This document shows positions 9,021-31,566 of a stretch of DNA of 64,000 bases, piece after piece (within the stretch, counting starts at the first letter, position 1; each line of letters opens with the position of its first letter). The notes beneath the pieces are model-generated. The model had not been told where the DNA came from, ran no database searches, and saw nothing but the letters and a program-made list of their open reading frames with translations. The translations under genes and the position numbers were made by a program. The stretch lies in the NCBI GenBank assembly GCA_015272325.1, contig JACYLU010000021.1, forward strand, positions 1-64,000, written 5' to 3'. This DNA comes from Synechococcales cyanobacterium C42_A2020_086 (lineage in GTDB: Bacteria; Cyanobacteriota; Cyanobacteriia; Elainellales; Elainellaceae).

Positions 9021-9029
9021 TTCGGAGGC

Positions 9030-10106: not shown

Positions 10107-10117
10107 GGCCAATTCCG

Positions 10118-14322: not shown

Positions 14323-15783
14323 CTATACCACCTCCACAGTAATGGACTGGCCCAATGACTCAAACTCGGAATCTAGGCGATAAAGTACGTTGCGAATCAG
14401 TTGACGCAGTCTCAGAGCAGGGAACAGACAATCACGTTCATAGTCTGCCACAGTCAATTCAAGATGCGGGTAAAGGATCTTGAGGAATCCAGAAGCAGAT
14501 TTCAGAATGCTGTTTTGATCTCGAACGGTAGAGGTGTGGTCAAATTTTGTGTGCTGTTGAGCATAGGTCAAATAACGATTATCTCTGCGTAAACTTAGCA
14601 GTGCCTCCCCAAAGAAATCCATTTTTAGCCCAACTTGCAAGGCTGCCATCTCTCGACTAAATTTAGGAATTTCCCAGCCAGGAATAATCCCAGAAAACCG
14701 ATCTAAAAAGGCAGTTTCCATCAGAAAACTGGGCAGATCAGCCAAGAGATTATTCGCATTGCGAGGCTGTAATTGGGCATCTAGCTCAATATTTCCCAGC
14801 ATAACCAAAGAACAATCGCTTGCGATATCAGCAAATCCCGCACGATTATATCGTCCGCTGGCCAAGTAGTTTTTTAATGGCCCAATGATTTCATCCGGAT
14901 CTTCAAACGTGAGACTTTGAATTTCATCCAAAACGACAACATCATGGCGACCTAGGAGTCCAATCTCTTTCGTACTGCCATTGATAAACAATTGAGAAGG
15001 GGTCACCTTGCCACCACTGACTAGGGCAACTTTATTGCTTACATTTTCATAAACATAGCTCTTCCCTGTTCCCTTGGGTGCTAGCTCCATAACATGATAG
15101 TTAGACTCCACCAGAGGCAAGAGCCTCGCAAGCATCCATATCTTGGCGTTATGAGTATATCGAGGATGTGCTGGGTTGTATCCCATCGAGCAAAGCATTA
15201 AATCTCGCCACTCATCGATCGTTAACTGGGAGCGCGCCCGTTCATAGGCTGATAGATCAACTGCGGAGCATTGAAAAGGATCAAAATTTACGATTTCTGG
15301 GGTTCCGTCTGTTCGCAGACTCAGGGAGATTTTTCCCCATAGCCCTTGCCGCAACAACATCTCATGTTGCTCAATAATAGAAATTGGAATAGCGCAGTTG
15401 TGAATATTTAAGACAGGGATACTAGCCATAGGGTCTGGAATTATGCCCCTATTCGCAGCTAGCTTGACCCGCACCTTAAGGAGCGCAATTAATTTATATA
15501 TTTCACCTTGTGTAAGCTTAAACAGAATAACGTTTTTGTCGTCCTTTCTTGGAAAAGCTTTACTGACAAAGTTGTTAATTTTCTCAGCTTCAAACTGCTG
15601 CAACGCTCCATTGCCAGGAACAATTTTGTCCAATAGCCATTCAGCCACAAAACTGGGAACTCCAGCCGCTGTTAGTCCGCTGGAGGGAAGGCGGGTCTTG
15701 TCAATACATAAATTTCCAAAAACCTGTCGAATGCGATCGCTATCGTAGGACATAGGCCTGGTTAAGCTGTTATAGGAAGTCAT
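14323..15783 (-). CDS. brxL: BrxL, BREX AAA+ ATPase lacking the Lon-like C-terminal domain
   Basis: About 486 residues. The N-terminus (VFGNLCIDKTRL, then GVPSFVAEWLLDK) matches the BrxL family DNA-binding region. The AAA core has Walker A APKGTGKS near 235-242, Walker B VVVLDEIQS near 283-290 and VMLGNI near 327. Family members I know are about 650-700 residues with a Lon-protease-like C-terminal domain; this one stops after RQLIRNVLYRLDSEFE and lacks it. The stop is clean and followed by a terminator-like hairpin, so this may be a natural short form. The ATG at 15783 overlaps the pglZ fusion gene by 14 bp, arguing for coupled translation. Last gene of the operon. Confidence 0.88.
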   Translation of the reverse strand: MTSYNSLTRPMSYDSDRIRQVFGNLCIDKTRLPSSGLTAAGVPSFVAEWLLDKIVPGNGALQQFEAEKINNFVSKAFPRKDDKNVILFKLTQGEIYKLIALLKVRVKLAANRGIIPDPMASIPVLNIHNCAIPISIIEQHEMLLRQGLWGKISLSLRTDGTPEIVNFDPFQCSAVDLSAYERARSQLTIDEWRDLMLCSMGYNPAHPRYTHNAKIWMLARLLPLVESNYHVMELAPKGTGKSYVYENVSNKVALVSGGKVTPSQLFINGSTKEIGLLGRHDVVVLDEIQSLTFEDPDEIIGPLKNYLASGRYNRAGFADIASDCSLVMLGNIELDAQLQPRNANNLLADLPSFLMETAFLDRFSGIIPGWEIPKFSREMAALQVGLKMDFFGEALLSLRRDNRYLTYAQQHTKFDHTSTVRDQNSILKSASGFLKILYPHLELTVADYERDCLFPALRLRQLIRNVLYRLDSEFESLGQSITVEVV

Positions 15784-18700
15784 CAATGCTCTCTATACCG
15801 CTGCTAAACATTTGATGAATTTCAATGAATGATTGGTCATCAAGCGAGGCTGAAGCAGACTCAGTATCCTGAAAGGTAAATTCTAACCTCCCGGTCAGCT
15901 TCAAATCTTTATTCTGAGAGCGGGGAGGCAACTCTGGACAGTTCTGCACTGGAAGCTGAAGAGTGCGTCGTTCACTAGCTAAGACTTCCTCCTGCAAAGG
16001 AACTCCCTGCTTTAGGGATGGTATTTCATTGATGAATAGTTTAAGCTGGCTTAGGCGTAGCGAATTGGGATTGTTAATCTCAACTGTCAACTGACCCGAT
16101 TCACGCGGCTTGCCCTGCCCAGAAACTTTAACAAGAACAGGAGCACGTTGGACAACAAGTTTCAGTACAGAAAAACCAACAACGACCTCCTCTGGATACA
16201 ACCCTCCATGACAGCCAATCACACTCTTGTCGTCTGCATAGCTAAAAGAGCTAAAGCTTTGGGAACCTCGGATGACTGTAATATCGTGGGGTAGCCCATA
16301 GCGCTGCTGATCTAAAACAGCAAAGCGGGGATCATCAGCACGCCCAACGGCCATCCGCCCCTGAGGTCGAAGTGTTTCAGGACAGTGGGCCAGTTTTGTT
16401 GAGGTGCCCATCAGTTGTCCATGATCGCTAGCAATCACGACGTACAGATCATCTGGCTTAGGATGAATTTTGACAAATCTCAGAATGTCACCTGCAATGT
16501 CTCTCAGCATTCGGGGACGCTTAATCTCATATAGCTCCTGCCAATCCACTTCGTTGTGATATAAGCTATCAAAGCGATCGGTATCCCAGCAGTAAACTCC
16601 GTAGCTTTCCTGCTGGAGGTCTTTTTGCAGACGCTGTTGCCTAACGTCGTGATCCGTGTAGCGCTTCGCATTTGACCACTGGTCGAACCCTCGACTTGCC
16701 TCAGCAATCCAAGCAGGATGTTCTGGTAAGCACTGACTGTAAAGACTCCACTTTGCATATTCTGTTTTCGTGGGCAAAATGCTAAAGCGCGGGCGCAGCT
16801 CTTGGTAAAGTCGAAGCTGCTTCTCATCCATCAGAAGGCTTAGAAGCGCTTGATGATCGAGCCAACCTAACCCATCAATCACAACCCACAGAACGGGATT
16901 TGTTTGACTGATCTGCTGAACCTCATGGGCAACGCTGTAATTTAGGAACGACTGCTCAATTTTATCGACCTTCATTTGAGGATAGTGATTGAGAATCCAG
17001 TCCACGAAGCTAGCAGCTAGGCGATCGCTCTTTTGCCGCTCTATCGGAGTGCGATCCACCGTCGTTTCCCAATAGCGCAGCGGCAGATAGGCTTGAGTTG
17101 CCCAGGCTAATGCTTCCTCTGGAGAAGCGTTTGGACTGAGAGGAGAAGGTTCCGGCGGGCACTGCCGCTGTGTCAACGCCTGACGCTGATCGTAGGTCAG
17201 ATATTGACGCAACTTATCTATTCGTTCCTTGGTCACATACGCGGGCTGCTGACTTAATACACGATAGGCTATTTGAGCAATGCAGTTCTGTCCTGGCAAA
17301 TCGTTCCAGGATAAGGTATCAAGTACGCTTACTTCGGTTCGGTAGAGCTGATGTTCCCAATATTGCTCAAACTCTGAGGCCAGCGCCGTGGGAAGGCTTG
17401 CGGGATACACCCCCAGTTCCTGAAATTTAGGCTCAGCAATCCCAAGCCACCGGCGAAGCAAGTCTTGCTTTTGATCAACGGCATAGTAGCGGCCTAATTC
17501 GTGCTGGCGGCGCTGCGCCTGCCAAGCTCGCTCCAAGGGTCGCAGTTCTTCTGGAACTTCAATTGCCAGCCATTGTGCTAGGTTAAGCACCGATGGCTCT
17601 GAGATCCAGACTTGCGGGTCGCTGTCTGTTAATTCTGCTAGGCAGCGAGCAATGGGCTGATCTGGGTAGCTTTCTAAGCGTATTGCAAGGGGCAGGCATT
17701 GTTGGTCTGTCCAGCTTTCCGGCACTGCTATGGGGGACAACAATGCGGCTAGTTTCTCTTTCGGAGGTTGTTTGATTTCGGCAATCTTGTGGTGCTGCTG
17801 CCAGCTTTGCAACCACACCTCTGTCCAGTTGCAAAGTATGTTGCCTCTCACCCAATAGGCCTGATTGCCTTGGGGCAGGTATCGTATCCAATCAACTTCT
17901 GTGTCAATCTGGACGTAACCGGCTGGGACTGGATAAGCTTTTGAGGGATCGAGAACAATAGGTTGTTCAGGATTTGGGCTAGGGTAGTATTGCGACGAAG
18001 CTGGTTGCTCAAAGACCGCAAGGTGGGGGTGATTTGAGAAATCTGCTGCCCCTTCTTGGATATTGCTCTCATCACTTTCAATAGTTGTGGATGGCTCAAC
18101 TGGGATGATCTCAGTATTTGGGGGCGCGGTTATGAAAGTTGTTTCTGCAGGAACTTGGGAATTAGGAATTTTTGATGTAGAAGTTTCTGAAGCAGGGGTT
18201 TCTAGAGGATGAAGGGTTACTTGACTGGAATCTTCCGATGCAAGCGGCTGTTGGGCGGGACGGCTGTCTACAGGCTTTTGCCGCAGGGTTAGCAACGCAT
18301 TGAGGGCAGTCATTAGTTCATCTGCCGACTGAAATCGGTGACTGCGCAAAGGGGCGATCGCCCGCTGCATCAGCGCCACTAGCTCATCGCTCAGATCAGC
18401 ACAGCCCTCAAAGCTTCGAGGATCTAGACAAGGCTGGCCGAGGACAGCATAGGCAGCATTAAACGGGTAATGGCCCGTAATGCACTCGTAGGCCGTTACT
18501 CCGAGAGCATACAGATCTCGATCAATGCGTTCACTTTCAGATGGCTCAACAGAGGGTCTAAAGTCGGGCGGTAAATAGCGACGAGTGCCCGCTGTGATGC
18601 CTGCATCACTGGCCGCGCTAACTGCAATATTGAAGTCAATAATCTTGACACCCTGAGGGGTTAGCAATAAGTTAGAGGGCTTGATGTCTTGATGATAAAT

Positions 18701-20530
18701 GCCATGAGCATGAAGATACGCTAATCCGTCAGCAGTTTGCCGCCAAACCTGTATCGCCTCCTCCAAGGTCAACCCGGAGGTAGCCAATTGCTCTTGCAGA
18801 TCTCGTCCCTCAACGTATTCCAGAATTAGAAACGGCGTGTGATCGTACTCATGCAGTTGTCCGGCCCATCGAACCGTTACAACATGGGGATGGGGATGGT
18901 TCAGAATTTTGTACAAGATCTTAAATTCTTGCTGCACCCGCTCCAAGGTGGAATAGCGATCGCGGATGACAATCTTTAGAACCTGAAAGTCTTCACTAAA
19001 GGAATCCAGCACTTTATAGGCTACCGCGAAGCTACCTGGTTTTCCGAGCCGCTCGATGACTTGATATTGATTATCCAGGATCGTTTCGGGTGGAAGATTG
19101 GTCAAGTCTGGAACGACCCTACACAGAGGAGTCAATTGGTCGAGCGCCTCTTGGGCACTTGCAAAGCGATCGCGCCGATCAAACGCACACAATTTCTGGA
19201 GCCATTCATCAAAGCCCTTCGGCAAGTCTGGATGGGCTTGAGAAGGGGCGATTGGAAACACCCCCCCGCGATTCAGCAGATCCTCTACGGACTGAAAAGC
19301 TGGCTGGCCTAGCAGCATCTCATAAAATACCTGACCGGCTGAATACAAATCCGACTGTTGACATGCCGCCGCCGGATTGCGCTGGCAGTCAAAATCTTGA
19401 TAGAGACTTGAAGCGTCCAAATCCTCAACAATCGCATCGGCAATGGTTGCGGTGCGATTTTCAAGCCGGGCATAGTCAAAATCCGTTAACTTGGCCTGTT
19501 TATCAGGAGTTACTAAGATAGCGTCGGGAGTAATGTTGCGGTGAATCACCCCGTGCTGGTGGGCATGTTCGAGGGCCCGGAGCACATCGCCAATCAGATT
19601 CATTTTTTGCTCTAGGGTCAGGGAGCGGTAGCGAATTAGCTGCCGCAAAGACTGTCCCTTGATATCTTCGATGACTAATACAATGCTATCTGCATCGTCG
19701 CTCTCAAAACTGTCTTTCACTTCTAGAATGTTGTCATGCTTCGGCAGTTCATCAACCGCCTGAAAAGCAGTATTGATTAAACGGTAAGCATCTGATCTTT
19801 CTGCTGGATCAAGCCAAGGATCGACTGCATAGACACGGAGTCTGGCAGTGCGATTACTGAGTCCAATCGTGACCCTTCTGGCGAGATATTCAACATAGCG
19901 ATTCTCTTTCTCGCCTAGTTTTTCAATGACTTCCCATGTTCCAAAGCGTTGGGGACGGCTTCGGGGCTGAGAGCGTCCTCGGATTGCGCGATCGATTGTG
20001 CTTAGATGGGGCGTAATTTTAGTTTCAAACTGTTTAGCATTAATGCCCTGCCAATTCCTAAAGTATTTTAGGCATTCTTCTCCTAGGCTAATAATATCTC
20101 TGCTTTCGGTTTGGTCGCGGCTAACATCAATAATTTCTACATTTTCGGTCGTCAATAAAACGCAAGCCTGCACCCAGATGCGCTGGAGTTCTTTTCTCTT
20201 AGGTGGATTGGCATCAGCAATCAATCCTTTCAGGACTCTGGCATGTTGCCGATATTTTTTGAGGGGCGAGGGATAGGGCTGGCGATGATCGAGGGGATAC
20301 CATTCTGCATAGTCAACTTCAACGCGCCCGTAGACCCCTTTCACATCGATGACATACACCGCATGGGGGGCGACTAAGATAATATCTACCTCGTATAGCT
20401 GACCGTTCTGAGGAATTTCTAAGTTGGTATAGAGGCAATAGTCATCTGATAAATGACCACTCAGATATTGAATGGCGGAACGCTCAGATTCAGTTTCGGG
20501 GTCTCCAAATTTAATAATTTTGGCAGGCAT
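15770..20530 (-). CDS. pglZ: PglW-PglZ fusion: NERD, pseudokinase, Ser/Thr kinase, PglZ
   Basis: 1586 residues with four modules. (1) NERD nuclease-like domain, about 15-130, keeping D49 and D62-V-K64. (2) Kinase-like domain about 195-470, with HRN (330-332) instead of HRD, DFD instead of DFG and no clear ATP-anchoring Lys: a likely pseudokinase. (3) Second kinase about 488-770, with Lys 519, HQDIKPSN (613-620) and DFN (632-634): probably active. (4) A linker, then a PglZ alkaline-phosphatase-fold domain about 1195-1480 with WVVIDGLGW and VVIASDHGQ metal-binding motifs. NERD-kinase is the architecture of PglW in type-2 BREX, normally a separate gene. Its ATG shares one base with the brxC stop (TAATG). 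Confidence 0.88.
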   Translation of the reverse strand: MPAKIIKFGDPETESERSAIQYLSGHLSDDYCLYTNLEIPQNGQLYEVDIILVAPHAVYVIDVKGVYGRVEVDYAEWYPLDHRQPYPSPLKKYRQHARVLKGLIADANPPKRKELQRIWVQACVLLTTENVEIIDVSRDQTESRDIISLGEECLKYFRNWQGINAKQFETKITPHLSTIDRAIRGRSQPRSRPQRFGTWEVIEKLGEKENRYVEYLARRVTIGLSNRTARLRVYAVDPWLDPAERSDAYRLINTAFQAVDELPKHDNILEVKDSFESDDADSIVLVIEDIKGQSLRQLIRYRSLTLEQKMNLIGDVLRALEHAHQHGVIHRNITPDAILVTPDKQAKLTDFDYARLENRTATIADAIVEDLDASSLYQDFDCQRNPAAACQQSDLYSAGQVFYEMLLGQPAFQSVEDLLNRGGVFPIAPSQAHPDLPKGFDEWLQKLCAFDRRDRFASAQEALDQLTPLCRVVPDLTNLPPETILDNQYQVIERLGKPGSFAVAYKVLDSFSEDFQVLKIVIRDRYSTLERVQQEFKILYKILNHPHPHVVTVRWAGQLHEYDHTPFLILEYVEGRDLQEQLATSGLTLEEAIQVWRQTADGLAYLHAHGIYHQDIKPSNLLLTPQGVKIIDFNIAVSAASDAGITAGTRRYLPPDFRPSVEPSESERIDRDLYALGVTAYECITGHYPFNAAYAVLGQPCLDPRSFEGCADLSDELVALMQRAIAPLRSHRFQSADELMTALNALLTLRQKPVDSRPAQQPLASEDSSQVTLHPLETPASETSTSKIPNSQVPAETTFITAPPNTEIIPVEPSTTIESDESNIQEGAADFSNHPHLAVFEQPASSQYYPSPNPEQPIVLDPSKAYPVPAGYVQIDTEVDWIRYLPQGNQAYWVRGNILCNWTEVWLQSWQQHHKIAEIKQPPKEKLAALLSPIAVPESWTDQQCLPLAIRLESYPDQPIARCLAELTDSDPQVWISEPSVLNLAQWLAIEVPEELRPLERAWQAQRRQHELGRYYAVDQKQDLLRRWLGIAEPKFQELGVYPASLPTALASEFEQYWEHQLYRTEVSVLDTLSWNDLPGQNCIAQIAYRVLSQQPAYVTKERIDKLRQYLTYDQRQALTQRQCPPEPSPLSPNASPEEALAWATQAYLPLRYWETTVDRTPIERQKSDRLAASFVDWILNHYPQMKVDKIEQSFLNYSVAHEVQQISQTNPVLWVVIDGLGWLDHQALLSLLMDEKQLRLYQELRPRFSILPTKTEYAKWSLYSQCLPEHPAWIAEASRGFDQWSNAKRYTDHDVRQQRLQKDLQQESYGVYCWDTDRFDSLYHNEVDWQELYEIKRPRMLRDIAGDILRFVKIHPKPDDLYVVIASDHGQLMGTSTKLAHCPETLRPQGRMAVGRADDPRFAVLDQQRYGLPHDITVIRGSQSFSSFSYADDKSVIGCHGGLYPEEVVVGFSVLKLVVQRAPVLVKVSGQGKPRESGQLTVEINNPNSLRLSQLKLFINEIPSLKQGVPLQEEVLASERRTLQLPVQNCPELPPRSQNKDLKLTGRLEFTFQDTESASASLDDQSFIEIHQMFSSGIESIDDFL

Positions 20531-23500
20531 TAGAAACGCTCCGTTGTCCCTTCGAGGTAGTCCGCAAGTCTTTGATAGATTCTGTGGCGCTGGTCGCGGG
20601 GGAGTTCTTGAAACAGGCTCAGAATCTTGCTGGCTCGATCTTGATTTTGAACAGCTTGGCAGGTTTCGAGGATGTGCCGCAAGGTTGTTTGCTGGTCGGC
20701 CGTCAAAAAGGCTTCATGCTGGCTGCGGTTGCGGCGGATCTCGGAGAGTAGCTCATTGGCGAGGGTTAAAGAGGGTTCGCCCGGCGGCAGTTGCTTAAGG
20801 TGCTCGGTTCTTGAAGACATCTCAGCTAGCCAATCGTTAGCAGCTTGCTGATGACGCTGTTGGATTGACTGCTGGGTTTGATCTAGCGTTTCGTAGCTGG
20901 CGACGTAGTGTTTTTCAACGAGCGGGGAAAGGTTGATTTGGGCGGCTTTCCATTTTTGCAGCCGTTCTAATTCGGCTTGGCAGTTTTCTAACGAGTCGTT
21001 CTGCTGAATGTCTAGAATTTGGTAGAGCGCAGTAAGTTGTTCGACATCCTGACGAAGACTATCGTAATGCTGCTTATATTCGGAGTCTTCGTACTGTGCA
21101 GCTTTGGCGAGTAGCTGCTTTTGGATGTCGCAGATGTCTTTTAGGGTAGAAGCCTGCTCTAACTGAGTTGGCCAATTCTGGAGTGTCTCAATGAACGACT
21201 GCCTAGCCGCTAGAATGCTTTGCTCTAGCTGATGAATTCGAGGCAGCAAGGGATTATCACTAGATAGCTTTTCGCGCTCCTGGGCTAGACGGGCGATCGC
21301 CTCCTCACACTCTGCAATAGAACTGACCTTTCGGTAGGCATCTTCTAGCTGGGCAACTTGTTCTACGGCTGCCCCTACTTCCCACAAGCGAGCCGCAAGC
21401 TGCTCATAGCGAGAAAAGTCAGATGAGTCTTTGAAGACAAACTCTAGCTTGGCGATCGCCTGACGCACTTGGTTTAAGGTAGTTCGATCGGTCAGAGTCT
21501 CAATTTTGTGGGCAATTGCTTCTAGCTTGGCAACCAACTCTGCACGTTTCGCCTGTAAACCCTGAACCAACTGCTGGATAACGTCTGCAAATTGCTCCGG
21601 AGAATGTAGCCTGCCTTGGTGATTCGTAAGCTCTGCTAAAGCCTGATCACATTGCAGAACTGTGTGGACATTCGACAGTTTAATTTGTTGAATTTCGCGC
21701 AGTGTTTGCTGATCTTCCGCTCGCTTTCGCCACTCAGCAAACTGACGCTCTAGAGACTGACCTGCGAGGTTCAGCCGTTCCTGTAGCTCAGCAAAGTCTG
21801 GGCGCTCTGCAATCAGGGCTTGGGCGTTTTGCACATAGCCTTTTAATTTACTGTACTCTTCAGCTTTTTTCAGTTCCCGATCGCACGCCTGGAATAGTTG
21901 CTCAAACTTTTGAGCGATCGCCCGTTTGCTCTCTGCCCTTAGTGTGTCTAGCTGCTGCTGATAGGGAGACGGATCGATTCGGTTAGTCGGAGGCAGGCTA
22001 AGCCGCATCAGGTCATCATAGGCCTGCATGGCATCGCCGAGGCTCTTGCGTTCTGTCGCAGACTGCTTGGCCTGCTGAGCCGTTTGAATGGCGGCCTTGA
22101 GCGCTTTTTCTTCATCCTCAACACTCTCGTCGTCTAAAATCTTTGCCTGAATGCGGTCGATGAGATTGCGAAGCTGCTGCTGACTCGTTTCCTCATCAAA
22201 GCGACTGAGTTCCTGAAGAATTTCCTGATTCAGTTGCAATGCTTCTGCCTTAGAAAGGGTCGGCAAAAAGCGACCTTCCCATTGGGCAATTCGGCGAATC
22301 AGGGACTCACGCTTTTCCTCAATTCCTGACAGAATCGTCTGATAATCCGGCATCTCCTGAACCGCAGGACACTGGGCCGCTATGTCTTGAATTTCAGATT
22401 GGATGCGACGATAGGCGCTCTGAGGAGAGCCAGGGGTTAGCGTGTCATAGAGTTGGCGAATTTGTTCGAGGCGCTGCTGAACCTGTTCTGTTTCTTGGAG
22501 TTCGCGGATGCGTTGCTCCACCTGCTGGAGGGCGGTGCGGAGGCTGTCGCAAAATCGGCTCGGCAGTTCGGAAATTTCGGCCAGGGCGTGAATGTAGCGT
22601 TCTACGTCGCTTTGATGCCGATAGGCTTCCTCCAGCGTCGAGAGAGTTTGAATCTGAGTCGTCGCAGCTTCGACTTGGACTTCTAGCCGAGTTCTCAGCC
22701 CTTGGATTGCGTTTTGCCACTCAGCAAGCTGGGATTCGGACGGATGAACCTGAGTCACGCCTGGAGATGAGGAATCCGGCGAGGGTGGCGCAATTTCTAG
22801 TGGGCCATAGAGCTTGGCCAGGGCCTCCAGCGGGGGGGGATTTTGTGTGGGGGGTTGCAACAGGGCGATCGCCCGTTGAGTTGGCGCAAACCATTGGTCA
22901 ATCGCGTTCATGCCCGCTTGGATTTGCTGCCGCTTTTGTGCCAGAACACGGCTCTTGGCTGGGTCCAAGCGTTGGGATTCCAGTTGTGCGGCTATCTGCT
23001 GGAGCAGCGTACTCGCCTCGTCATAATCCAGCGTGTCGGGAACGCTTAAATCAAACGGTCGGCGGCGCACCAGCTTGTTGCGACCTTTAATCACCCATTC
23101 CTGAATAAATTCCTTGGGTTTTTCCAGAATGTTGGTATGAACCCACTCGTGGATTGGGGCCGTTTTCACCGAAACCTGCTCATTTCTCCGTTTGGGGATG
23201 CCAAAACTGCCCGATAGCTCAACCTCAGCACAGTGGTGGGCCAACCACGCCGCAAACAGCATCGTAAACGTCAGTTCATTGTGGCCAAAGGGTGCGTCTC
23301 GCAATCGCTTCCAAATTTCGGCAATTTCGATGCTGATCTGCTCCCGATCGCCCAACTCGGCCATCTCAGAAATTCGATCCCATGCCTCACGAATGTTGGG
23401 ATTTGTCGGCACTTGAACCGTGTAGGGTGTGCCGGACTTAAGGAGACCCCAGCGGCGAACAAACACGGCATCGATCAGCGTCTCGTAGCCCTTGTTTGGA

Positions 23501-25923
23501 AATGGCTTTTTGAGGTCATGGGCCAGCAGTTGGCGGGATGCATAGCTGACGACGGTTGAACCTGTGGTGCTGTTGCTGCGGAGCTTGTCGTTGCTCTCAA
23601 CGGGTGGCACAAAGGAATAGAGGTGATCCAGCATGGCGCAGACCACCGTTTCTAGCTTATTTTGCTCGGCGAGCGGCACCTTATCCATCACCTGACAAAT
23701 GTAGGTGCAGCTTGAAAAAATTTCCTTGAGGGCGGTATCGATGTACTGGTCTAGCTGCTTTGTGAGTTCTGCAACGGCCGGGCCAAACTCTTGCTTTTCG
23801 GCAACACTCTTATTATTCAGCGCCTCTCGCATTTGCAGTTGCCGAGCCAGGTCTCGGGTTGCACGACCAGGAATGGCGAGAATGATGCGATCGCGAACGG
23901 TTTGGGGGGCCTTGTCTAGCTCAGCTTTGGCTTGGTTTCGCAGGGTTTCCAGATCGCGATCCGTTTCGCCTAAGAAGTAGGCAATGAGGCCGCGTGCTGA
24001 CAATCCTGCGATGATGCGATCGCTACTTAGGCTGCGCTGCAAGGTATCTACCGAAAACACATTACAGCTAAACTGCCACTCGTCTCGATTGAGGCTATGT
24101 TTATTGACAAACTGATTGGCATAGACCACTACATCGTCTCGATATTGCCCCAAGTTCTTCCGAGCGTGTGCAATCAGATCCCCGAAATCGGGGGGCGTGT
24201 TTTCAATTTCTTCCTCAATTTTGCGGCGCAGATCGTTAATGCTAAAGCCAGAGTAAAAGCGATAGGTTTGATTGCCCGGATTGTGGTAAATCACCTGATA
24301 GGTATTGACCAACTTTTTGAGCAATGCGCTGGTTTTTGGCACTGAGAAACCAGTCATCATCGCCAGCAGTTCTTCATGCGGTTCCCGCTCGCCCTTTTTC
24401 AGCTTTTGCTCGCTCAAATAGTAGAGGGCGATCGCCCTTAGCACGGTCACTTCGTCAGGGGTAGCAGATGCGGCGATCGCATCGTAGGCTTTTTTATAAT
24501 CTGCGTAGCTTTGCTTTTGGGAAAAGTTGCTGACGAAGGCATCCAGAAGCTGCACAGGACGCACGTAGTTCAGGTATCCTTCTGTTTCTACAGGGCTTGT
24601 TTCGATAAACTTGGCCACGTCCTCTTTGATGAACTGAATGGCGGTTCGCCCTTGGGTAAACTCCAGGTTGCACAGCAAATAGGCCGTCAGCGGATGCAGC
24701 GGATAGCAGCCCAACCCCAAGTGCTTATGGAAGTCGTCGTAGGGCCAGTTGCGATTGCTGTAGGCGGTGATGTACTTGTCATAGGCTCGGCGAGATTCGG
24801 ATAAAAGGTCTTTGCCCCACTGTTGCCGAAAATCCTGCCAGGTATTGGCATTAGACTGGTTCAGCAGATTGTCCATCACCAGTTCCAGGCTGGACTGGGG
24901 TTCATAGGTGCTGGTTGCCAGTTCGATGCGGGTCGTAAACCGTTCATATCGCTTCCGGTCGAACGCAGAAACGTCTCGGTCGATCGAGGGGCGCACCTGT
25001 GCCAAGCACAGCATTGCCAGCCGACCTTTGTGGTTAGCACAGGCATTGGTGAGATTTTGCAACACCCAGCCGCCAGCCGCATTGGGGTTTTGGAGCCACT
25101 TTCTTAGGTAGGCATTTAGCTCGTCGAACAGGATCAACAGACCCGAAAAGCGGCTATCAGGGCCGGTGCAGAGTTGGTCAATAGTATCTTTGAGGATGGC
25201 TTCGATATCGAGATTCTGCTGAAAGTCGAGCGGATCGCCATAAAACTCCTGGCTTAGCTCTCGAACTGTAGGAATTAGCTCGTATTGTCCTTCTTGGAGT
25301 AGCTCGATCAGGTCATCCAGCCCATAGGGTGGGTCTTGCTCTGCCAAAAATGCCTCAGCACGGCTGCGCTGCTCAGCAGAGAGGTTTTGCAGAAACCGGA
25401 GGGGACGCTCCGTAAAGCGTTGGGCCAGGGTGTCTTGAATGCCGTGTTCGGCGAGGGCGCTTTGCAAGCCTTGCAGCAGCAGCTTGCCCAGGTCGGCTGC
25501 GGTTTCGCCGCTGATGCAGACGACCAGATAGGGCTTGCTGCGCTCCTTAAAAGCCTTCAGCGTTTCGACAACGGCCTGCGATCGCCCCGACACGGCATAG
25601 CCCATCTGCGCCAAAATGCCAGCCACCTCCGGACTGTCAGCGGGCTGCTTGAAAAAGTTGGCCAGGGTCAGCGCAAAGTGAGACTTGCCCTTGCCAAAGT
25701 CTTGCACCATGAGGTGAATGTTGTCGTGATTGGCGCTATGAAAGCTGAGCCGAACGGCATCCACTACCCCCAAGGTAGAAGATTTGGGGCGATCGCCATC
25801 ATAGTTAAACACAAACCCCTGACACAGCCGCAGGTTTTTGTCGGGGTCTGCCATCATGTTGAGGTTGACAGCATCGGCCACTAAGCCGTTGTGGTTGATG
25901 GTAACAAGGTCTCGAATTTGCAT
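20530..25923 (-). CDS. brxC: BrxC/PglY-like P-loop ATPase with long coiled-coil C-terminus
   Basis: 1797 residues, larger than typical BrxC/PglY (about 1200). The Walker A is QDFGKGKS at 74-81: the first Gly/Ala of the P-loop is Gln, but GKS is intact. A Walker-B-like strand LLILFDELNAYL lies near 257-268. The middle (600-1000) holds the family-like helical region. From about 1050 to the end the protein is almost entirely heptad-like Gln/Glu/Leu-rich helix, suggesting a very long coiled coil. In BREX this protein is the large ATPase that works with PglZ. It is followed without gap by the pglZ fusion and preceded by a small unknown gene. Confidence 0.82.
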   Translation of the reverse strand: MQIRDLVTINHNGLVADAVNLNMMADPDKNLRLCQGFVFNYDGDRPKSSTLGVVDAVRLSFHSANHDNIHLMVQDFGKGKSHFALTLANFFKQPADSPEVAGILAQMGYAVSGRSQAVVETLKAFKERSKPYLVVCISGETAADLGKLLLQGLQSALAEHGIQDTLAQRFTERPLRFLQNLSAEQRSRAEAFLAEQDPPYGLDDLIELLQEGQYELIPTVRELSQEFYGDPLDFQQNLDIEAILKDTIDQLCTGPDSRFSGLLILFDELNAYLRKWLQNPNAAGGWVLQNLTNACANHKGRLAMLCLAQVRPSIDRDVSAFDRKRYERFTTRIELATSTYEPQSSLELVMDNLLNQSNANTWQDFRQQWGKDLLSESRRAYDKYITAYSNRNWPYDDFHKHLGLGCYPLHPLTAYLLCNLEFTQGRTAIQFIKEDVAKFIETSPVETEGYLNYVRPVQLLDAFVSNFSQKQSYADYKKAYDAIAASATPDEVTVLRAIALYYLSEQKLKKGEREPHEELLAMMTGFSVPKTSALLKKLVNTYQVIYHNPGNQTYRFYSGFSINDLRRKIEEEIENTPPDFGDLIAHARKNLGQYRDDVVVYANQFVNKHSLNRDEWQFSCNVFSVDTLQRSLSSDRIIAGLSARGLIAYFLGETDRDLETLRNQAKAELDKAPQTVRDRIILAIPGRATRDLARQLQMREALNNKSVAEKQEFGPAVAELTKQLDQYIDTALKEIFSSCTYICQVMDKVPLAEQNKLETVVCAMLDHLYSFVPPVESNDKLRSNSTTGSTVVSYASRQLLAHDLKKPFPNKGYETLIDAVFVRRWGLLKSGTPYTVQVPTNPNIREAWDRISEMAELGDREQISIEIAEIWKRLRDAPFGHNELTFTMLFAAWLAHHCAEVELSGSFGIPKRRNEQVSVKTAPIHEWVHTNILEKPKEFIQEWVIKGRNKLVRRRPFDLSVPDTLDYDEASTLLQQIAAQLESQRLDPAKSRVLAQKRQQIQAGMNAIDQWFAPTQRAIALLQPPTQNPPPLEALAKLYGPLEIAPPSPDSSSPGVTQVHPSESQLAEWQNAIQGLRTRLEVQVEAATTQIQTLSTLEEAYRHQSDVERYIHALAEISELPSRFCDSLRTALQQVEQRIRELQETEQVQQRLEQIRQLYDTLTPGSPQSAYRRIQSEIQDIAAQCPAVQEMPDYQTILSGIEEKRESLIRRIAQWEGRFLPTLSKAEALQLNQEILQELSRFDEETSQQQLRNLIDRIQAKILDDESVEDEEKALKAAIQTAQQAKQSATERKSLGDAMQAYDDLMRLSLPPTNRIDPSPYQQQLDTLRAESKRAIAQKFEQLFQACDRELKKAEEYSKLKGYVQNAQALIAERPDFAELQERLNLAGQSLERQFAEWRKRAEDQQTLREIQQIKLSNVHTVLQCDQALAELTNHQGRLHSPEQFADVIQQLVQGLQAKRAELVAKLEAIAHKIETLTDRTTLNQVRQAIAKLEFVFKDSSDFSRYEQLAARLWEVGAAVEQVAQLEDAYRKVSSIAECEEAIARLAQEREKLSSDNPLLPRIHQLEQSILAARQSFIETLQNWPTQLEQASTLKDICDIQKQLLAKAAQYEDSEYKQHYDSLRQDVEQLTALYQILDIQQNDSLENCQAELERLQKWKAAQINLSPLVEKHYVASYETLDQTQQSIQQRHQQAANDWLAEMSSRTEHLKQLPPGEPSLTLANELLSEIRRNRSQHEAFLTADQQTTLRHILETCQAVQNQDRASKILSLFQELPRDQRHRIYQRLADYLEGTTERF

Positions 25924-26022: not shown

Positions 26023-26538
26023 CTAGGTTGGTGCAGTTGCAGCCGAAGACACGGGACTGGATGGGATGGGATAACGCTCGAAACAATGGAGCCGATCGCG
26101 CGGCCACTGGGCCGGAACAAGACTGCTAGGCAGCACGATCCACAGCCGCTTGGGCAACTGGCGCAAGTCGATCAGTTGTTGCCAAAACAAGGGCACATCG
26201 CTGCTGCTGACGGCTGCGAGATAGGTTATGAAGGTTTCAAAGCCTTCAAGCTGAATACAGCTTTGGGGAATGTTGGGACTAGCGCATAGATCCCGGAGCG
26301 CCTGAATCTCTCGATCGATGCGGCGATGCAAGAGCAGGTTGGGGCTAGTGGACTGGGCGGTGTGGCGTTCAAGCAATGCTTGGCAATAGTTGACTCGATG
26401 CGTACCGTAGCGAAATCGCAGTTGTTCGTAGCGCCAGTCGCCCTCCCGCAAGTCCCACTGAATGATATGGGGGCGATCGCTCGGAATGGTGACTGCGTGC
26501 AGGTTGGAAGCCATGCTCATCCTCGGTGCCTGATCCAT
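26023..26538 (-). CDS. Unknown small BREX-operon protein
   Basis: 171 residues; ATG at 26538 with GGAGC upstream, 13 bp after the DUF4007 stop and 100 bp before brxC. Features: REGDWRYEQLRFRYG, an Arg-rich helix (NLLLHRRIDREIQALRDLC), and an alternating strand-like LPKRLWIVLPSSLVP followed by FERYPIP. No family recognised. By size and place it could be a BrxB-like accessory, but I see no motif that proves it. Confidence 0.6.
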   Translation of the reverse strand: MDQAPRMSMASNLHAVTIPSDRPHIIQWDLREGDWRYEQLRFRYGTHRVNYCQALLERHTAQSTSPNLLLHRRIDREIQALRDLCASPNIPQSCIQLEGFETFITYLAAVSSSDVPLFWQQLIDLRQLPKRLWIVLPSSLVPAQWPRDRLHCFERYPIPSSPVSSAATAPT

Positions 26539-26551: not shown

Positions 26552-27397
26552 TTAGCGGGTGGGGTTAGACTGGGCGTAGGCTTGTTCTAGCAGGGCGATC
26601 GCCCTATCCCAGCGGCGCACCAACTGATGGGGAGGCACAGTGCGTCGCTGCTCCACCAGGCCATACACCTCTAGCTTATCCAACTGATCTTGCAGCGAAG
26701 TCGGCTCTAGCCCCAGCAGCGGTGCTAGCCCCATCGGGTGATGGCACACATCCTCCGTAATCACAGAGGTCACATCGCCATAGTCGCGCTCCCACAGCTT
26801 CGCCAAGAAATAGCCCACCAAGTAGGGATGGGGCAGCCGCGCCTCCCCCGTTGCATACTGAGTATTGCTCAACTCTTGCACAAACTGACAAGCCGCCAAT
26901 GCCTGTGGCTCCGTATAGGCTCGCAGCGCATAGCGCAGATTTTTCTCCAGATTTTTGCTGGTTTCTCGTTCAAACACTAGCCCGGCTTCGTAAACCAGGT
27001 TTTCCACCGAAAAAGTAAAGTGTGCTGGCAAAAACTGATAGACCAACCACGTCCAACCGCCCCACTCTGCCGGGCTTTGGGGCACTGGCGATAGCCCCTT
27101 GTCGCCAAAGCTGAGATAAAAATGCATCAGCCAATCTGTCACAGGAGACCGAAGCTCCGGATCATGAGCCATCACCACCCGCCCCTCCGGACTCAAACGA
27201 TGCCCCTGAACCAATCCACACCGCACTGCCCAGCTTCTCACTGGGCCAACTTTCTTATTGCCCAACCCGGTTCTCTGCATCAGGTCATCCAACTTACCTT
27301 GTAAACCCTGAGGCTCATCCGCCGCTCTAAGGACTTTTTGCAAGTCCTCCTTCTTGAGTGCGAACGTTGTGTGAAAACCCAATTGAAGCTCAGGCAT
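26552..27397 (-). CDS. DUF4007-family protein (divergent copy)
   Basis: 281 residues. DUF4007 proteins are commonly found beside PAPS-reductase-like genes and large ATPases in Dnd/BREX-type islands. The middle shows the family pattern: LGNKKVGPVRSWAVRCGLV, a short gap, then LRSPVTDWLMHFYLS, lined up with LGVGKNMVRSIRYWCTAF and PASLWLLHWTLL in the better-conserved copy at 36.9 kb. The N-terminal HETF motif is changed to HTTF. It lies 39 bp after the DUF262 gene. Molecular role unknown; a DNA- or partner-binding adaptor is plausible. Confidence 0.75.
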   Translation of the reverse strand: MPELQLGFHTTFALKKEDLQKVLRAADEPQGLQGKLDDLMQRTGLGNKKVGPVRSWAVRCGLVQGHRLSPEGRVVMAHDPELRSPVTDWLMHFYLSFGDKGLSPVPQSPAEWGGWTWLVYQFLPAHFTFSVENLVYEAGLVFERETSKNLEKNLRYALRAYTEPQALAACQFVQELSNTQYATGEARLPHPYLVGYFLAKLWERDYGDVTSVITEDVCHHPMGLAPLLGLEPTSLQDQLDKLEVYGLVEQRRTVPPHQLVRRWDRAIALLEQAYAQSNPTR

Positions 27398-27436: not shown

Positions 27437-29791
27437 CTAACTCACTGACAACCAACTATACAAACGTTCCCATAAGATACTGCATATTCTTTCACTACGT
27501 TTTTCGACCAACTCCTTATCCCAGGCTCTTTCAGAACCCAATTCCACTATAGGTAAAATGTGAGAATTATGAGATGAGTTAGTCAACAATTTAATAGCTT
27601 GATCGCTCAGGTTAATTCCTCTCTCTTGAGCCTGCGAGGTCAACTCTGCTAGCCGATCTGGATCTTTTTGTGAAAGATGCTGATAGTAAATGAACTTTTC
27701 TATCCAACCCTTATTACTTAGAGAACTATTGACATCAACGGGGAGAAGAGTCAGGTTACCAATTCGCTGATAATTGTCATCCTCATACAAAGAATTGTCC
27801 CACTGAGAGAGATCATTAGATGACTGATTCTTTTGTGGTGCTATATGCTCAATAGTTGACAATTCTTGGGAATTCCACTTTTCAGGGGTTAGGTATTTAG
27901 GAGTACTACCTGGCAACCCCTCCTTCATTAGTCCAGGACAGTCAGGATCGGGGATAGTATCTTCAGCCGTAACGAAAAGCGAAAACTTGCATACAACTTT
28001 TGATTCGTCGTATCTCAGGAAACTTTTTGCCTTACTCAGCCAATCCGGCTTGTTTCCAATACCTCTCTCTGCCAGTTTACGCTTGAAATACTCTGACAAG
28101 AATTTTGCCGTTAGCTTCTCGTCACCCTTCTCCCAACATATCTCATTCGCCAAAAGCTCTCTGTATACATCGTCTAATCCGGAATTTGAAAGTGAAGAGC
28201 GCCAAATCGTATAAAAGGCAGTCGTGACCTTCAAAGCAGAAATAAATTCTTGAACTGAACCTAAGATAGTCTCATTAGAATCACGTTCATGCAGTACCTT
28301 CGAGTAAAAACGACTGAGAACAGTTAGCGCCATTCTGTGATTTGCATCTCGCAAGTACAGCAAAAAGACAGTAGATACTTTCTTATCTTGATCTTGTACT
28401 GGCAAAGACTCCAATACATAGGATTTTTTACTAGGCTCGAACTGCACAACCTCTTTCCAGTAGATTGCAAGTTCGCCCATGTGTTGCAGAAACTCTTCCT
28501 TGTCAGAATTGGATCTGCACTTATTTTCATACGAATTACACAACCAGCGTCTCTGCGTGCTAAATTGCTTAGATAGCTTAAAGCCACTTTGTGCTAAAGC
28601 AAAAGCTGTCAAAAAATCATTGGTTATCTTGCTTTTAGCTGATGCTTTCGTTTCAGAAGATAATAAGTCATCTACTGACTTGAGGTGACGATCAGATTTA
28701 GAGTTTTGGAAACTAGCTCCTGAGGACTCAACGTAATTAACGACTAGTGGCTTGAAAGTTTCGTAAGCCGTGAGGGGCGTTCCTGTCGCGTTGAGAGACT
28801 GAAACATATCAAATGCTCTCACGTCTGATTCCGGCTTAATCACAGTAAAGCAACAGCGATTCAAGAGATAATCACAAAAGGCAAACAAACGCACTAACTT
28901 ACTTAGATGCCTGTCTTCATCGCTCAGAGAATTGGTGTTATCCTCAATCTGACGAATTCTGTTGCGCAAAGCCTCTCTCGGATAGCTCCATAACTCAAGC
29001 TCTGTAATTTTCCCTGCCTCAATTGCTTTGAGGATTTTTTGGACAGAAGGCAAGGAAGTTTTCTCACTTGACAGAAACTCACTCATTTTTTTAAGGTTTC
29101 TCTGAACCAAGCCTCTGCCCCTCACCGGAGGAAAACTTGGAGCTTCATTAGTGTTGATGGCAGTGTTGATGGCTCGAATAAAGCTTGCCAAATAATAGGA
29201 CACTGGTGACTTGTAATTATCGTCGTTTCCATCTAAAGTCCATTGATCGACCGATGCCCTTATTATGATGGGTTTCCGTTGTGGACTTCCACGTCTTATA
29301 TCAACAGAAAACAGATCTTTCAGATTTTCCAGATAAGTTTGGGCCGCTTCTTTTGCATCCTTGCTGCCATCTGTGTCCGAAAGGCGCTGTTGAAGTTCAT
29401 AAATCTCTTTATAAAGTTGACATGATAGCAAGGCGATTGTAGACAGTCTCTGCTGCCCATCAATTACGTTGTCAACTCGAGTTGGCAAAGCTCGCTGATC
29501 TAGGGGCTTTATATTCTTAATTGGTTCTTTCTCTGTAACAAGAATAATGGTTCCCATGAAGTGAATCTGCTGATCTGGGCTAGTTTGCCTACCCACATCA
29601 GCATCCTCATCAAAAATATTCTCAAGCCCATTCAGAATGTCTTCTAAGAGTTGATCGATGTTTTCAGTATCCCAGCTATATTCCCTCTGGTACAAAGGAA
29701 TGTAGTATCCTAAGCCTGCCTGTTGAAAGAAGCCTAGAATCGACGTACTGTTGCTCGTAAAGATTCGTGAGATATCAACAGTGCCTTGCAT
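27437..29791 (-). CDS. DUF262/DUF1524 protein (GmrSD/SspE-like nuclease)
   Basis: 784 residues. N-terminal DUF262 (ParB/Srx-like) domain with IPLYQREYSW (31-40) and the DGQQRLST NTPase motif (111-118). C-terminal DUF1524 HNH-like nuclease with EHIAPQ near 645, then NLTLLPVDVNSSLSNKGW. This arrangement is that of GmrSD, BrxU and SspE, which sense modified DNA and cut. In this operon it would be the restriction arm. The coding sequence is visibly richer in A and T than brxC or the DUF4007 genes, suggesting a more recent arrival. A 111-bp gap with a perfect inverted repeat separates it from the PAPS-reductase gene upstream. Confidence 0.88.
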   Translation of the reverse strand: MQGTVDISRIFTSNSTSILGFFQQAGLGYYIPLYQREYSWDTENIDQLLEDILNGLENIFDEDADVGRQTSPDQQIHFMGTIILVTEKEPIKNIKPLDQRALPTRVDNVIDGQQRLSTIALLSCQLYKEIYELQQRLSDTDGSKDAKEAAQTYLENLKDLFSVDIRRGSPQRKPIIIRASVDQWTLDGNDDNYKSPVSYYLASFIRAINTAINTNEAPSFPPVRGRGLVQRNLKKMSEFLSSEKTSLPSVQKILKAIEAGKITELELWSYPREALRNRIRQIEDNTNSLSDEDRHLSKLVRLFAFCDYLLNRCCFTVIKPESDVRAFDMFQSLNATGTPLTAYETFKPLVVNYVESSGASFQNSKSDRHLKSVDDLLSSETKASAKSKITNDFLTAFALAQSGFKLSKQFSTQRRWLCNSYENKCRSNSDKEEFLQHMGELAIYWKEVVQFEPSKKSYVLESLPVQDQDKKVSTVFLLYLRDANHRMALTVLSRFYSKVLHERDSNETILGSVQEFISALKVTTAFYTIWRSSLSNSGLDDVYRELLANEICWEKGDEKLTAKFLSEYFKRKLAERGIGNKPDWLSKAKSFLRYDESKVVCKFSLFVTAEDTIPDPDCPGLMKEGLPGSTPKYLTPEKWNSQELSTIEHIAPQKNQSSNDLSQWDNSLYEDDNYQRIGNLTLLPVDVNSSLSNKGWIEKFIYYQHLSQKDPDRLAELTSQAQERGINLSDQAIKLLTNSSHNSHILPIVELGSERAWDKELVEKRSERICSILWERLYSWLSVS

Positions 29792-29902: not shown

Positions 29903-30718
29903 TTAAAGATGACACGCTAAACACGGCAGCGTGTCATCCTCCTGGTCTAACACCGTACTCAGCACCTCGGCAAGGGGCAGGTTGTCTTGCTTTGCCTGCT
30001 GACGCGCCATGGCCCGCTGATGGTCGGCAATGATTTGTTCCTTGCGGGCCAACAGTTCTAGCAGCGTTTCGCCCTGGGTCCAGGTGTAGGTGCGGCCGTC
30101 TTTGTGGCGCTGTTCATATTCCACTGCCTTGGCAAATAAATCCGGATGGTGTTCATATAACATCACCCATTCATATTTGCGCTGAAAAAAGCAAAAATAG
30201 CACCCCGATCGACTGCGCCAAGCGTAATATTTGGGCAGGCCAATGCCACTTTCTTCAAGCAGCCGCAAAATATCTGCCTTCACCAAGCCGCGCTCTTTGA
30301 ACGGATAGACGGGCTTGATGTTGGGTTTGGTGGAAATGTAACCGTCGCGGTGTTCATCGGCGCGGATGCCAACATAGCTAATGGTGTTGTCTTCCCCGAC
30401 AAAGTCTTCCAGGGGCTTGATTTTAAGTTGTTTTGTACACCATCGCATTTGGGGAGAAGGGAGAACCCCGCCGTATACATCAAGCCAATGATCAAATCCT
30501 CGTTCTGCACTGAGGTAATGAATCGTAATCCCTAGTCGGGCTTTGATCCGTTCTAGATACTCATAGGTTTCATCGAGTTCTCGATGGGTATCGCAGAAAA
30601 AGTATTCCATCTGCGGAACCTCCTGGTGCAGCAGCACCGCCAGCGCCGTGCTGTCTTTGCCGCCCGATAGGCCCAGGATATGTCGCGTCGGTTTGGTCAT
30701 GGGTGCATTATGGCTCAT
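29903..30718 (-). CDS. PAPS-reductase-like PP-loop protein (BrxP/DndC-like)
   Basis: 271 residues from the ATG at 30718, which overlaps the previous stop as ATGA; the open frame further upstream is an antisense-free shadow of that gene. PP-loop SGGKDS at 18-23; cysteines C94 (RWCTK) and C173, C176 (GCYFC) fit a DndC-like Fe-S or sulfur-transfer site. A C-terminal LPCLACHL adds two more cysteines. In Dnd systems DndC drives sulfur incorporation into the DNA backbone; type-4 BREX carries a PAPS-reductase gene (brxP) instead of the PglX methylase. Its place with brxC, pglZ and brxL fits type 4. Sulfur donor could be the cysteine desulfurase at 5.8 kb. Confidence 0.85.
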   Translation of the reverse strand: MSHNAPMTKPTRHILGLSGGKDSTALAVLLHQEVPQMEYFFCDTHRELDETYEYLERIKARLGITIHYLSAERGFDHWLDVYGGVLPSPQMRWCTKQLKIKPLEDFVGEDNTISYVGIRADEHRDGYISTKPNIKPVYPFKERGLVKADILRLLEESGIGLPKYYAWRSRSGCYFCFFQRKYEWVMLYEHHPDLFAKAVEYEQRHKDGRTYTWTQGETLLELLARKEQIIADHQRAMARQQAKQDNLPLAEVLSTVLDQEDDTLPCLACHL

Positions 30719-31566
30719 TCGGAAATTTCGCGGCAGTGAGAATCTGGTTTTAGCTGGGCTTGCCAGTGTTGGGGCTTGAGGATGAGGCGGTCGGCCGTGA
30801 GGGGGCCGTGGTGGAATGCTACTCGGTGGGTATTGGTCGCCAAATCTAGCTGATAAACCAACGCCAGGATATAGCAGTCTGCATGGCGCAGAGAAAAGAT
30901 GCGCTCTCCTTCGCTCAGCCAAAACGTGGGGCTGGGGCCGGGGGTGGCTTTGACGTTGACATAGGCCACGGGCTGCGGCAACGCCCCCACCAAGATATTG
31001 AACCCGACAGTGTGAACGGGCTGCTGGTGGATAGGGACGTTGGGATAGCGCTGTCGCAGCAGATCGGTCACCAGTTGCAACGCGGCTTCTTCGTGTTGAA
31101 AATCGCAGGGAGCCTCGGCGGGCTTGGCATAGGCATCGCCCCAGCGGGCTAGCTCTGCCACCCGATAAAGCCGCAACAGTTCGGCATCTGGATAGCGCTG
31201 CTGGCGGGCGGCTCGGTCGATCCAGTCGGCAATTGCTTCTTCGCACAGGGCGATCGCCTCCTCCACCGCAGGGCGATCGCTGAGATCCACGTTGAGCCGA
31301 AAGGTCTGGGAAGATTTGTCATAAGTAAGAATTTCATACCTACCAACCAGTACCCGTTTAGGGTTGTCCATCAACACTCGATCCCAGTCTTCTATGCCCT
31401 GCTCGTCGTAGCCGCTGAGAGTGGTGGCCAGGTCGCTGCGCGGGGCCCAGCCGTCGCGGGTTAGCAAGTGCAAAATGACCGCAGGCTGATAGATGGTCTG
31501 CATGGTCATGGTGTGGCGCAAAAAGTCGAGCAGTTCGGCGATGGGGCGCATGGCGCGGGGGGGCAT
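30715..31566 (-). CDS. DUF3883-like protein with N-terminal winged-helix-like region
   Basis: 283 residues. The C-terminal ~100 residues resemble DUF3883/PD-(D/E)xK-like domains: VGFNILVG, then VAYVNVKATPG, then ERIFSLRHADCYILALVYQ, the equivalent of the usual EVKGT strand although the Glu is Asn here. The N-terminus (YQPAVILHLLTRDGWAPRSDL) looks like a winged helix. Four bases overlap the PAPS-reductase start, so the two are translationally coupled. Role unknown; perhaps recognition of DNA for the sulfur-transfer protein. Confidence 0.65.
   Translation of the reverse strand: MPPRAMRPIAELLDFLRHTMTMQTIYQPAVILHLLTRDGWAPRSDLATTLSGYDEQGIEDWDRVLMDNPKRVLVGRYEILTYDKSSQTFRLNVDLSDRPAVEEAIALCEEAIADWIDRAARQQRYPDAELLRLYRVAELARWGDAYAKPAEAPCDFQHEEAALQLVTDLLRQRYPNVPIHQQPVHTVGFNILVGALPQPVAYVNVKATPGPSPTFWLSEGERIFSLRHADCYILALVYQLDLATNTHRVAFHHGPLTADRLILKPQHWQAQLKPDSHCREISE

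What the first reader, a model, noticed from the sequence alone, without database searches (positions are those of the whole stretch)
15770..20530. PglW and PglZ fused in one 1586-residue protein with tandem kinase domains
The protein has, in order, a NERD domain with intact acidic residues, a kinase-like domain with HRN/DFD (catalytically dead by motif), a kinase with HQD and an ATP-anchoring Lys, and a PglZ domain. In type-2 BREX, NERD-kinase PglW and PglZ are separate proteins; in type 4, no kinase is expected. The fusion links kinase signalling with PglZ in one chain and pairs a pseudokinase with an active kinase, as in some regulatory pairs.
Basis: partly seen in the sequence, partly recalled or inferred. 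Interest (0 to 1): 0.85.

Follow-up and report, generated by a model that had tools for sequence, protein, structure and literature searches.

The report
Kinase-nuclease fusion in cyanobacterial phage defence
A cyanobacterial anti-phage island of the sulfur-tagged-DNA (phosphorothioate) BREX kind has its PglZ nuclease permanently joined to a nuclease-like domain and a pseudokinase-kinase pair that other defence systems carry on other proteins, which suggests that protein phosphorylation controls PglZ and makes that idea testable.

Summary
Window 15770-20530 (-) is one intact 1586-residue frame: NERD, pseudokinase, kinase, Pro/Ser/Thr-rich linker, PglZ. It is not a sequencing join: ten other cyanobacterial loci carry the same intact fusion, and five more carry broken copies. 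Pseudokinase Asn332 is invariant, as are Lys519, Glu535, Asp615 and Asp632 of the kinase. The AlphaFold model's best PDB matches are the tandem pseudokinase-kinase JAK1 and TYK2.

The N-terminal half is closer to the MAD6/DndF cassette (679 bits, above its 460 cut-off) than to PglW (223 bits, cut-off 990). And the fusion sits in a conserved five-gene module, DUF4007 - small protein - BrxC/SspC-like ATPase - (kinase-)PglZ - BrxL, next to SspB, C, D and E. In relatives PglZ is mostly a separate ~735-residue gene, and the genomes almost always encode a phosphorothioate sulfurtransferase (8 of 8 panel genomes against 100 of 386 overall).

The triad itself is known (PglW, DndF); I found no published description of its fusion to PglZ. 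Most likely the kinase pair gates PglZ, or its BREX partners, within the complex. That step is inferred. A new variant of a known kind.

The parts
15770..20530 (-). NERD-pseudokinase-kinase-PglZ fusion protein, 1586 aa; its ATG overlaps the stop of the upstream ATPase gene (TAATG)
   Evidence: same intact fusion in ten other loci
20153..20491 (-). NERD (PD-(D/E)XK nuclease-related) domain, residues 14-126; E38, E47, D49, D62 and K64 invariant
   Evidence: Pfam PF08378 1.7e-15; invariant columns
19106..19960 (-). Pseudokinase domain, residues ~191-475, HRN332 in place of HRD
   Evidence: Pfam Pkinase second stretch, invariant N332, TYK2/JAK fold match, homology to the second kinase
18266..19105 (-). 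Predicted active Ser/Thr kinase, residues ~476-755; K519, E535, HQD615, DFN632-634 invariant
   Evidence: Pfam PF00069 489-692
17975..18265 (-). Pro/Ser/Thr-rich linker, residues 756-852, 15% mean identity between fusions
15773..17974 (-). PglZ part, residues 853-1586, equivalent to the ~735-aa standalone PglZ of relatives; D1219, T1254, D1369, H1370 and H1441 are the presumed metal-site residues
14323..15786 (-). BrxL AAA+ (Lon-like), end of the restriction module
   Evidence: PADLOC BrxL 8e-131, Pfam BrxL_ATPase
20530..25923 (-). BrxC/SspC-like P-loop ATPase, 1797 aa, with a long extended C-terminal region
   Evidence: no hit in Pfam, PADLOC or NCBIfam; hhalign to SspC 96.7% probability, E 3.7e-10
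26023..26538 (-). Small conserved protein, 171 aa, possibly BrxB/inactive-AAA-like
   Evidence: conserved in 22 loci; weak AAA/ORC/STAND fold matches only, best E 0.02-0.3
26552..27397 (-). Second DUF4007 protein (BrxA/SspB-like DNA-binding)
   Evidence: Pfam DUF4007 1e-8, PADLOC SspB 2e-11
27437..29791 (-). SspE (GmrSD-type phosphorothioate-sensing effector)
   Evidence: PADLOC SspE 5e-296, GmrSD_N/C
29903..30715 (-). SspD (PAPS-reductase-like sulfurtransferase)
   Evidence: PADLOC SspD 2e-114 against BrxP 5e-13
33423..36929 (-). SspC ATPase
   Evidence: PADLOC SspC 1481 bits
36926..37849 (-). SspB (DUF4007)
   Evidence: PADLOC SspB 6e-121

Best explanation
The island is a phosphorothioate-linked BREX system, type-4-like, built from two modules. 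SspB, SspC and SspD (with a desulfurase) put sulfur marks on host DNA. A restriction module of a second DUF4007 protein, a small protein, a BrxC/SspC-like ATPase, PglZ and BrxL acts on unmarked DNA. In this lineage PglZ, the metal-dependent nuclease, carries at its N-terminus the NERD-pseudokinase-kinase cassette otherwise found on PglW and DndF/MAD6. Proposed mechanism: the pseudokinase (HRN, cannot phosphorylate) holds or releases the neighbouring active kinase in response to complex assembly or a phage signal, and the kinase then phosphorylates PglZ and/or its BREX partners in cis, licensing DNA cleavage by PglZ with NERD as a second nuclease. Shown by sequence, fold and comparative genomics: the architecture, its conservation, the intact catalytic residues, and the operon and phosphorothioate link. 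Inferred: that the kinase gates PglZ, the substrate, the trigger, and nuclease activity of this PglZ and NERD.
For: Same intact fusion in 11 loci including the window, always directly between the ATPase gene and brxL. The two halves' distance matrices agree (Mantel r 0.93, p 1e-4), so they have largely evolved as one protein. Pseudokinase dN/dS is 0.09-0.17, as low as the kinase (0.14-0.17), so it is constrained. Kinase K519/E535/D615/D632 and NERD E47/D49/D62/K64 are invariant. Best PDB fold matches are tandem pseudokinase-kinase JAK1/TYK2, then PknB. All 8 panel genomes with the module have DndC or SspD, against 100 of 386 cyanobacterial genomes (p 1.6e-5 without phylogenetic correction); 15 of 16 genomes in a second check too, two of them shared with the panel. 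PglW kinase activity is needed for Pgl phage resistance, and PglZ occurs as two isoforms in that system (PMC4365076). Type-1 PglZ is a metal-dependent nuclease (PMC12205998).
Against: Nothing here shows kinase, NERD or PglZ activity. About two dozen related modules use PglZ without any kinase, so the cassette is dispensable for the basic system. One fused protein (L034) has lost a presumed PglZ metal ligand (SDHG to SDRG) but keeps the kinase, and five loci carry a PglZ with the whole nuclease core deleted; both show that PglZ can have a non-nuclease role. In type 1, PglZ needs no kinase.
Confidence: 0.45

Rival explanations
1. The NERD-kinase cassette is a backup suicide effector bolted onto PglZ. 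When PglZ restriction fails or is inhibited, the kinase and NERD attack host proteins and DNA, causing abortive infection; PglZ is only the anchor to the complex, not the kinase's substrate.
For: This is the role proposed for the same cassette on DndF and PglW (PMC10853773; PMC12839542). PglW expression appeared toxic in E. coli (PMC4365076). The cassette is absent from many related modules, as expected of an optional effector. The linker is long and poorly conserved.
Against: Stable in-frame fusion and correlated evolution with PglZ across a divergent family favour a tighter coupling, though they do not prove it.
Confidence: 0.3
2. PglZ acts as a phosphatase paired with the kinase, so that the chain is a writer and eraser of phosphate on BREX partners.
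For: PglZ has an alkaline-phosphatase-superfamily fold and the presumed metal-site residues are conserved.
Against: Type-1 PglZ and PorX act as nuclease/phosphodiesterase (PMC12205998; PMC12839542); no protein phosphatase activity is reported in the papers read.
Confidence: 0.1
3. The fusion is only a means of fixed stoichiometry or co-localisation in the BREX complex; kinase signalling is independent of PglZ, as PglW is in type 2.
For: In type 2 BREX the kinase works as a separate protein (PMC4365076). The linker is 15% identical between fusions and varies greatly in length, so no precise geometry is kept.
Against: It does not say why fusions recur at this one gene while no unfused neighbour kinase was seen in any related module.
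Confidence: 0.12
4. A sequencing or assembly join of two neighbouring genes.
For: A PglZ-only gene exists in relatives.
Against: Ten independent loci have the same intact joined frame; in unfused relatives no NERD-kinase gene lies next to pglZ.
Confidence: 0.01

Closest known systems
PglW of type-2 BREX/Pgl
   Same: N-terminal NERD, inactive kinase, active kinase in the same order; in a system with PglZ and a BrxC-type ATPase
   Different: C-terminal half is PglZ instead of wHTH repeats plus an inactive STAND domain; only 223 bits to the PglW model (cut-off 990); no PglX, BrxD or BrxHI recognised in the island
MAD6 of MADS / DndF with N-terminal cassette
   Same: Closest cassette by sequence: MAD6 model 679 bits (cut-off 460); DndF-type L079 and MADS-like plasmid protein L088 about 40% identical
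   Different: C-terminal DndF core and its DndG/DndH (MAD7/MAD8) partners are replaced by PglZ with BrxC-like and BrxL partners
Type-4 (phosphorothioate) BREX
   Same: PglZ, BrxC/SspC-family ATPase, DUF4007, PAPS-reductase-like sulfurtransferase and BrxL; no PglX methyltransferase recognised
   Different: Separate Ssp modification set plus a second DUF4007 and a second, long ATPase; SspE present; kinase cassette on PglZ; no iSTAND domain recognised on PglZ (a small separate protein may stand in)
Two-module locus of Thermomicrobium roseum plasmid NC_011961
   Same: DUF4007, SspC, PAPS reductase, DUF4007, small protein, BrxC-like, PglZ, BrxL, desulfurase in the same order
   Different: PglZ is standalone, no kinase
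JAK1/TYK2 pseudokinase-kinase pair
   Same: Tandem fold, best PDB match of the model
   Different: Works-like comparison only; about 16-18% identity, no claim of common regulatory history

Membership tests
Type-4 BREX | PglZ | tested here: met
   PADLOC PglZ 2e-25; PorX PglZ structures 1e-7
Type-4 BREX | BrxC/SspC-family ATPase | tested here: met
   hhalign 96.7%, E 3.7e-10 to SspC; SspC itself also present
Type-4 BREX | PAPS-reductase-like sulfurtransferase | tested here: met
   SspD at 29903-30715; better to SspD (2e-114) than to BrxP (5e-13)
Type-4 BREX | DUF4007 | tested here: met
   Two copies
Type-4 BREX | BrxL | tested here: met
Type-4 BREX | iSTAND at the N-terminus of PglZ (in 64% of type-4 taxa) | tested here: inconclusive
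   Not seen; the small protein 26023-26538 gives only weak AAA/ORC matches. PMC12839542
Type-4 BREX | Phosphorothioate marks on host DNA and phage resistance | not testable with these tools
   Needs bench work
PglW (type-2 BREX) | NERD-pseudokinase-kinase N-terminal half | tested here: met
PglW (type-2 BREX) | Passes the PglW family cut-off | tested here: not met
   223 bits against 990; partly because the C-terminal half is missing
PglW (type-2 BREX) | C-terminal wHTH triad and inactive STAND | tested here: not met
   That half is PglZ
MAD6/DndF | Passes the MAD6 family cut-off | tested here: met
   679 bits against 460, residues 3-611
MAD6/DndF | DndF P-loop core after the cassette, with DndG/DndH partners | tested here: not met
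   Replaced by PglZ, BrxL and a BrxC-like ATPase
PglZ nuclease | Metal-site residues | tested here: met
   D1219, T1254, H1370, H1441 invariant and D1369 nearly so in 27 PglZ sequences
PglZ nuclease | Nuclease activity | not testable with these tools
   Shown only for type-1 PglZ (PMC12205998)

The most novel reading that the evidence does not exclude
A single-chain, phosphorylation-gated BREX nuclease: the pseudokinase senses an infection state and switches the kinase, which phosphorylates PglZ or its partners in cis, so PglZ cuts only after a kinase signal. By the Rosetta-stone argument this would also explain what PglW does to PglZ in type-2 BREX.
Probability: 0.33. Interest if true: 0.78.

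Novelty: new variant of a known kind. Interest (0 to 1): 0.6.

Why it matters
How BREX restricts phage, and why some BREX and Dnd systems carry a NERD-pseudokinase-kinase protein, are open questions. For Pgl it was proposed that PglW phosphorylates other Pgl proteins and that PglZ exists in two forms (PMC4365076). A natural, conserved fusion of that cassette to PglZ suggests that the two work on the same thing, and gives one chain in which kinase-dead, pseudokinase and nuclease mutants can be compared. It also shows that the cassette moves between PglW, DndF/MAD6 and PglZ, that is, between methylation-based and phosphorothioate-linked systems.

Tried and rejected
Assembly join: rejected (ten other intact loci). 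PglW identity: rejected in favour of a MAD6/DndF-type cassette. Fusion unique to this genome: suggested by the first panel of 386 genomes, overturned by the wider scan. A scan of viral contigs with the C-terminal 786 residues (linker plus PglZ) found nothing. Identity of the small protein by profile and by fold: no significant match. Profile of the long ATPase against the PDB: only coiled-coil noise. Single origin of the fusion: not settled. The PglZ tree needs 5 changes between fused and solo (2 forced by well-supported branches), and long branches (L057, L048) meet, so one early gain with losses and repeated gains both fit; the NERD-kinase and PglZ trees agree in the main but differ locally. 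Longer ATPase in fused loci (median 1804 against 1552 aa): three solo loci also have the long form, so it was not used as evidence. Nonomuraea hit: no annotation, not used. Papers that would matter and are not held: the 2015 BREX survey, the type-4 phosphorothioate BREX preprint and its later version; the MADS paper was not found in the library. So 'not described' means not in the papers I could read.
Full report
The reading frame is real. ORF 15770-20530 on the minus strand encodes 1586 residues without a stop. Pfam finds NERD at 14-126 and two kinase stretches. The C-terminal part is PglZ by PADLOC (2e-25) and by a 27-sequence profile that matches PorX PglZ-domain structures (1e-7); Pfam's PglZ model alone stays below its cut-off.

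The surroundings are a phosphorothioate island. On the same strand come SspB, SspC, SspD and SspE (PADLOC), with three extra genes between SspC and SspD, then DUF4007, a small protein, a 1797-aa ATPase, the fusion, and BrxL. The ATPase matches no model in Pfam, PADLOC or NCBIfam but its 22-sequence profile aligns with SspC at 96.7% probability, E 3.7e-10, so it belongs to the BrxC/SspC family.

The module is conserved. In cyanobacteria the order DUF4007 - small - BrxC-like - PglZ - BrxL recurs. In most relatives PglZ is a separate gene of about 735 residues that aligns to residues 853-1586 of the fusion. A wide scan and a search of relatives found the same NERD-pseudokinase-kinase-PglZ frame intact in ten other loci: L022, L023, L025, L033, L034, L035, L036, L050, L057 and G420/L076 (1487-1593 aa). 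Broken copies lie in L038, L055, L056, L058 and L063, and G116 has one cut by a contig end. The L023 ATPase has lost its first 268 residues. Outside cyanobacteria, Thermomicrobium roseum has the two-module locus with a standalone PglZ.

The catalytic picture is consistent. In 12 NERD-kinase sequences Asn332 of the first kinase is invariant, and K519, E535, D615, D632 of the second and E38, E47, D49, D62, K64 of NERD are invariant. The DFG-position Asp of the first kinase is kept only in the window among the ten fusions aligned. Domain identities between fusions are 42-56% but 15% in the linker; dN/dS in two close pairs is 0.09-0.17 for the pseudokinase. The AlphaFold model of residues 1-768 (pLDDT 83.7, pTM 0.47, so domain placement is uncertain) matches JAK1 and TYK2 pseudokinase-kinase first and PknB next.

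The cassette's kin are MAD6 and DndF. NCBIfam gives MAD6 679 bits (cut-off 460) against PglW 223 bits (cut-off 990). DndF-type proteins in G170/L079 and a MADS-like plasmid locus, Piscinibacter L088, also pass the MAD6 cut-off. The same NERD, inactive kinase, active kinase order is described for PglW and for a subset of DndF (PMC12839542; PMC10853773). What I did not find in the readable literature is its fusion to PglZ.

The module goes with phosphorothioate modification. Some solo loci have DndC next to the module, others Ssp. In the 386-genome panel all 8 genomes with the module have DndC or SspD, against 100 of 386 overall (p 1.6e-5, not corrected for relatedness). In a second check of 16 genomes, 15 have one (two of these, L012 and L014, belong to the panel); the exception is L023, whose ATPase is truncated.

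History. The PglZ tree needs five changes between fused and solo states, two forced by well-supported branches. Distances of the two halves correlate at r 0.93, so the fusion is old and inherited largely as a unit, but the number of gains and losses is open.

Function. Type-1 PglZ is a metal-dependent nuclease (PMC12205998) and PglW kinase activity is needed for Pgl resistance (PMC4365076). I therefore favour a kinase pair that gates PglZ or its partners within one complex, with a backup suicide effector as the main rival. No activity was measured; substrate, trigger and direction of control are inference.

Noticed in passing
L064 1601-2248, L065 9992-10651, L066 9992-10642, L067 1593-2198, L068 9992-10648: A mini-PglZ of about 200-220 aa in five Anabaena-group loci: the first ~65 residues and the C-terminal domain are kept, the whole nuclease core is deleted, and BrxL (and, where the contig allows, DUF4007, small protein and ATPase) remains. 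Suggests a scaffold role of PglZ without cutting.
   Followed up: partly
L034 7616-12202 and L056 920-5502 (Nostoc sp. CMAA1605, one contig): Two copies of the fusion on one contig: L034 is intact in frame but has SDHG changed to SDRG in PglZ, L056 is frame-broken.
   Followed up: partly
window 7794-13267 (+): Three-gene set on the other strand ending in a 1049-aa AAA plus HerA/FtsK-like protein with weak MAD8 similarity (1e-20); may be a separate defence system.
   Followed up: no
window 30715-33311 (-): Three genes (NOV_C-type, PDC-M41A match and an unassigned one) inserted between SspC and SspD; the NOV_C gene also precedes SspD in L076.
   Followed up: no
window 39161-41233 (+): 690-aa relative of the phosphorothioation-associated methyltransferase family (TIGR04096), carrying an extra copy of the C-terminal segment at its N-terminus compared with 482-aa relatives.
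   Followed up: no
window 20530-25923 (-): The BrxC-like ATPase has a long form (~1800 aa) in the complete fused loci and a shorter form (~1330-1570) in most solo loci; three solo loci have the long form.
   Followed up: partly
L083 15953-18133 and 6113-9439: PADLOC models PDLC02549 (PglZ) and PDLC02478 (BrxC) match the Thermomicrobium roseum proteins end to end at 1742 and 2632 bits, so they were probably built from them; the second ATPase and the small protein of the same locus match no PADLOC model.
   Followed up: no
L077 10309-14446, L078 9043-12482: Frame-broken NERD-pseudokinase-kinase proteins in two genomes of the window's family (G410, G392); L077 is followed by DndG/DndH-like genes.
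   Followed up: no
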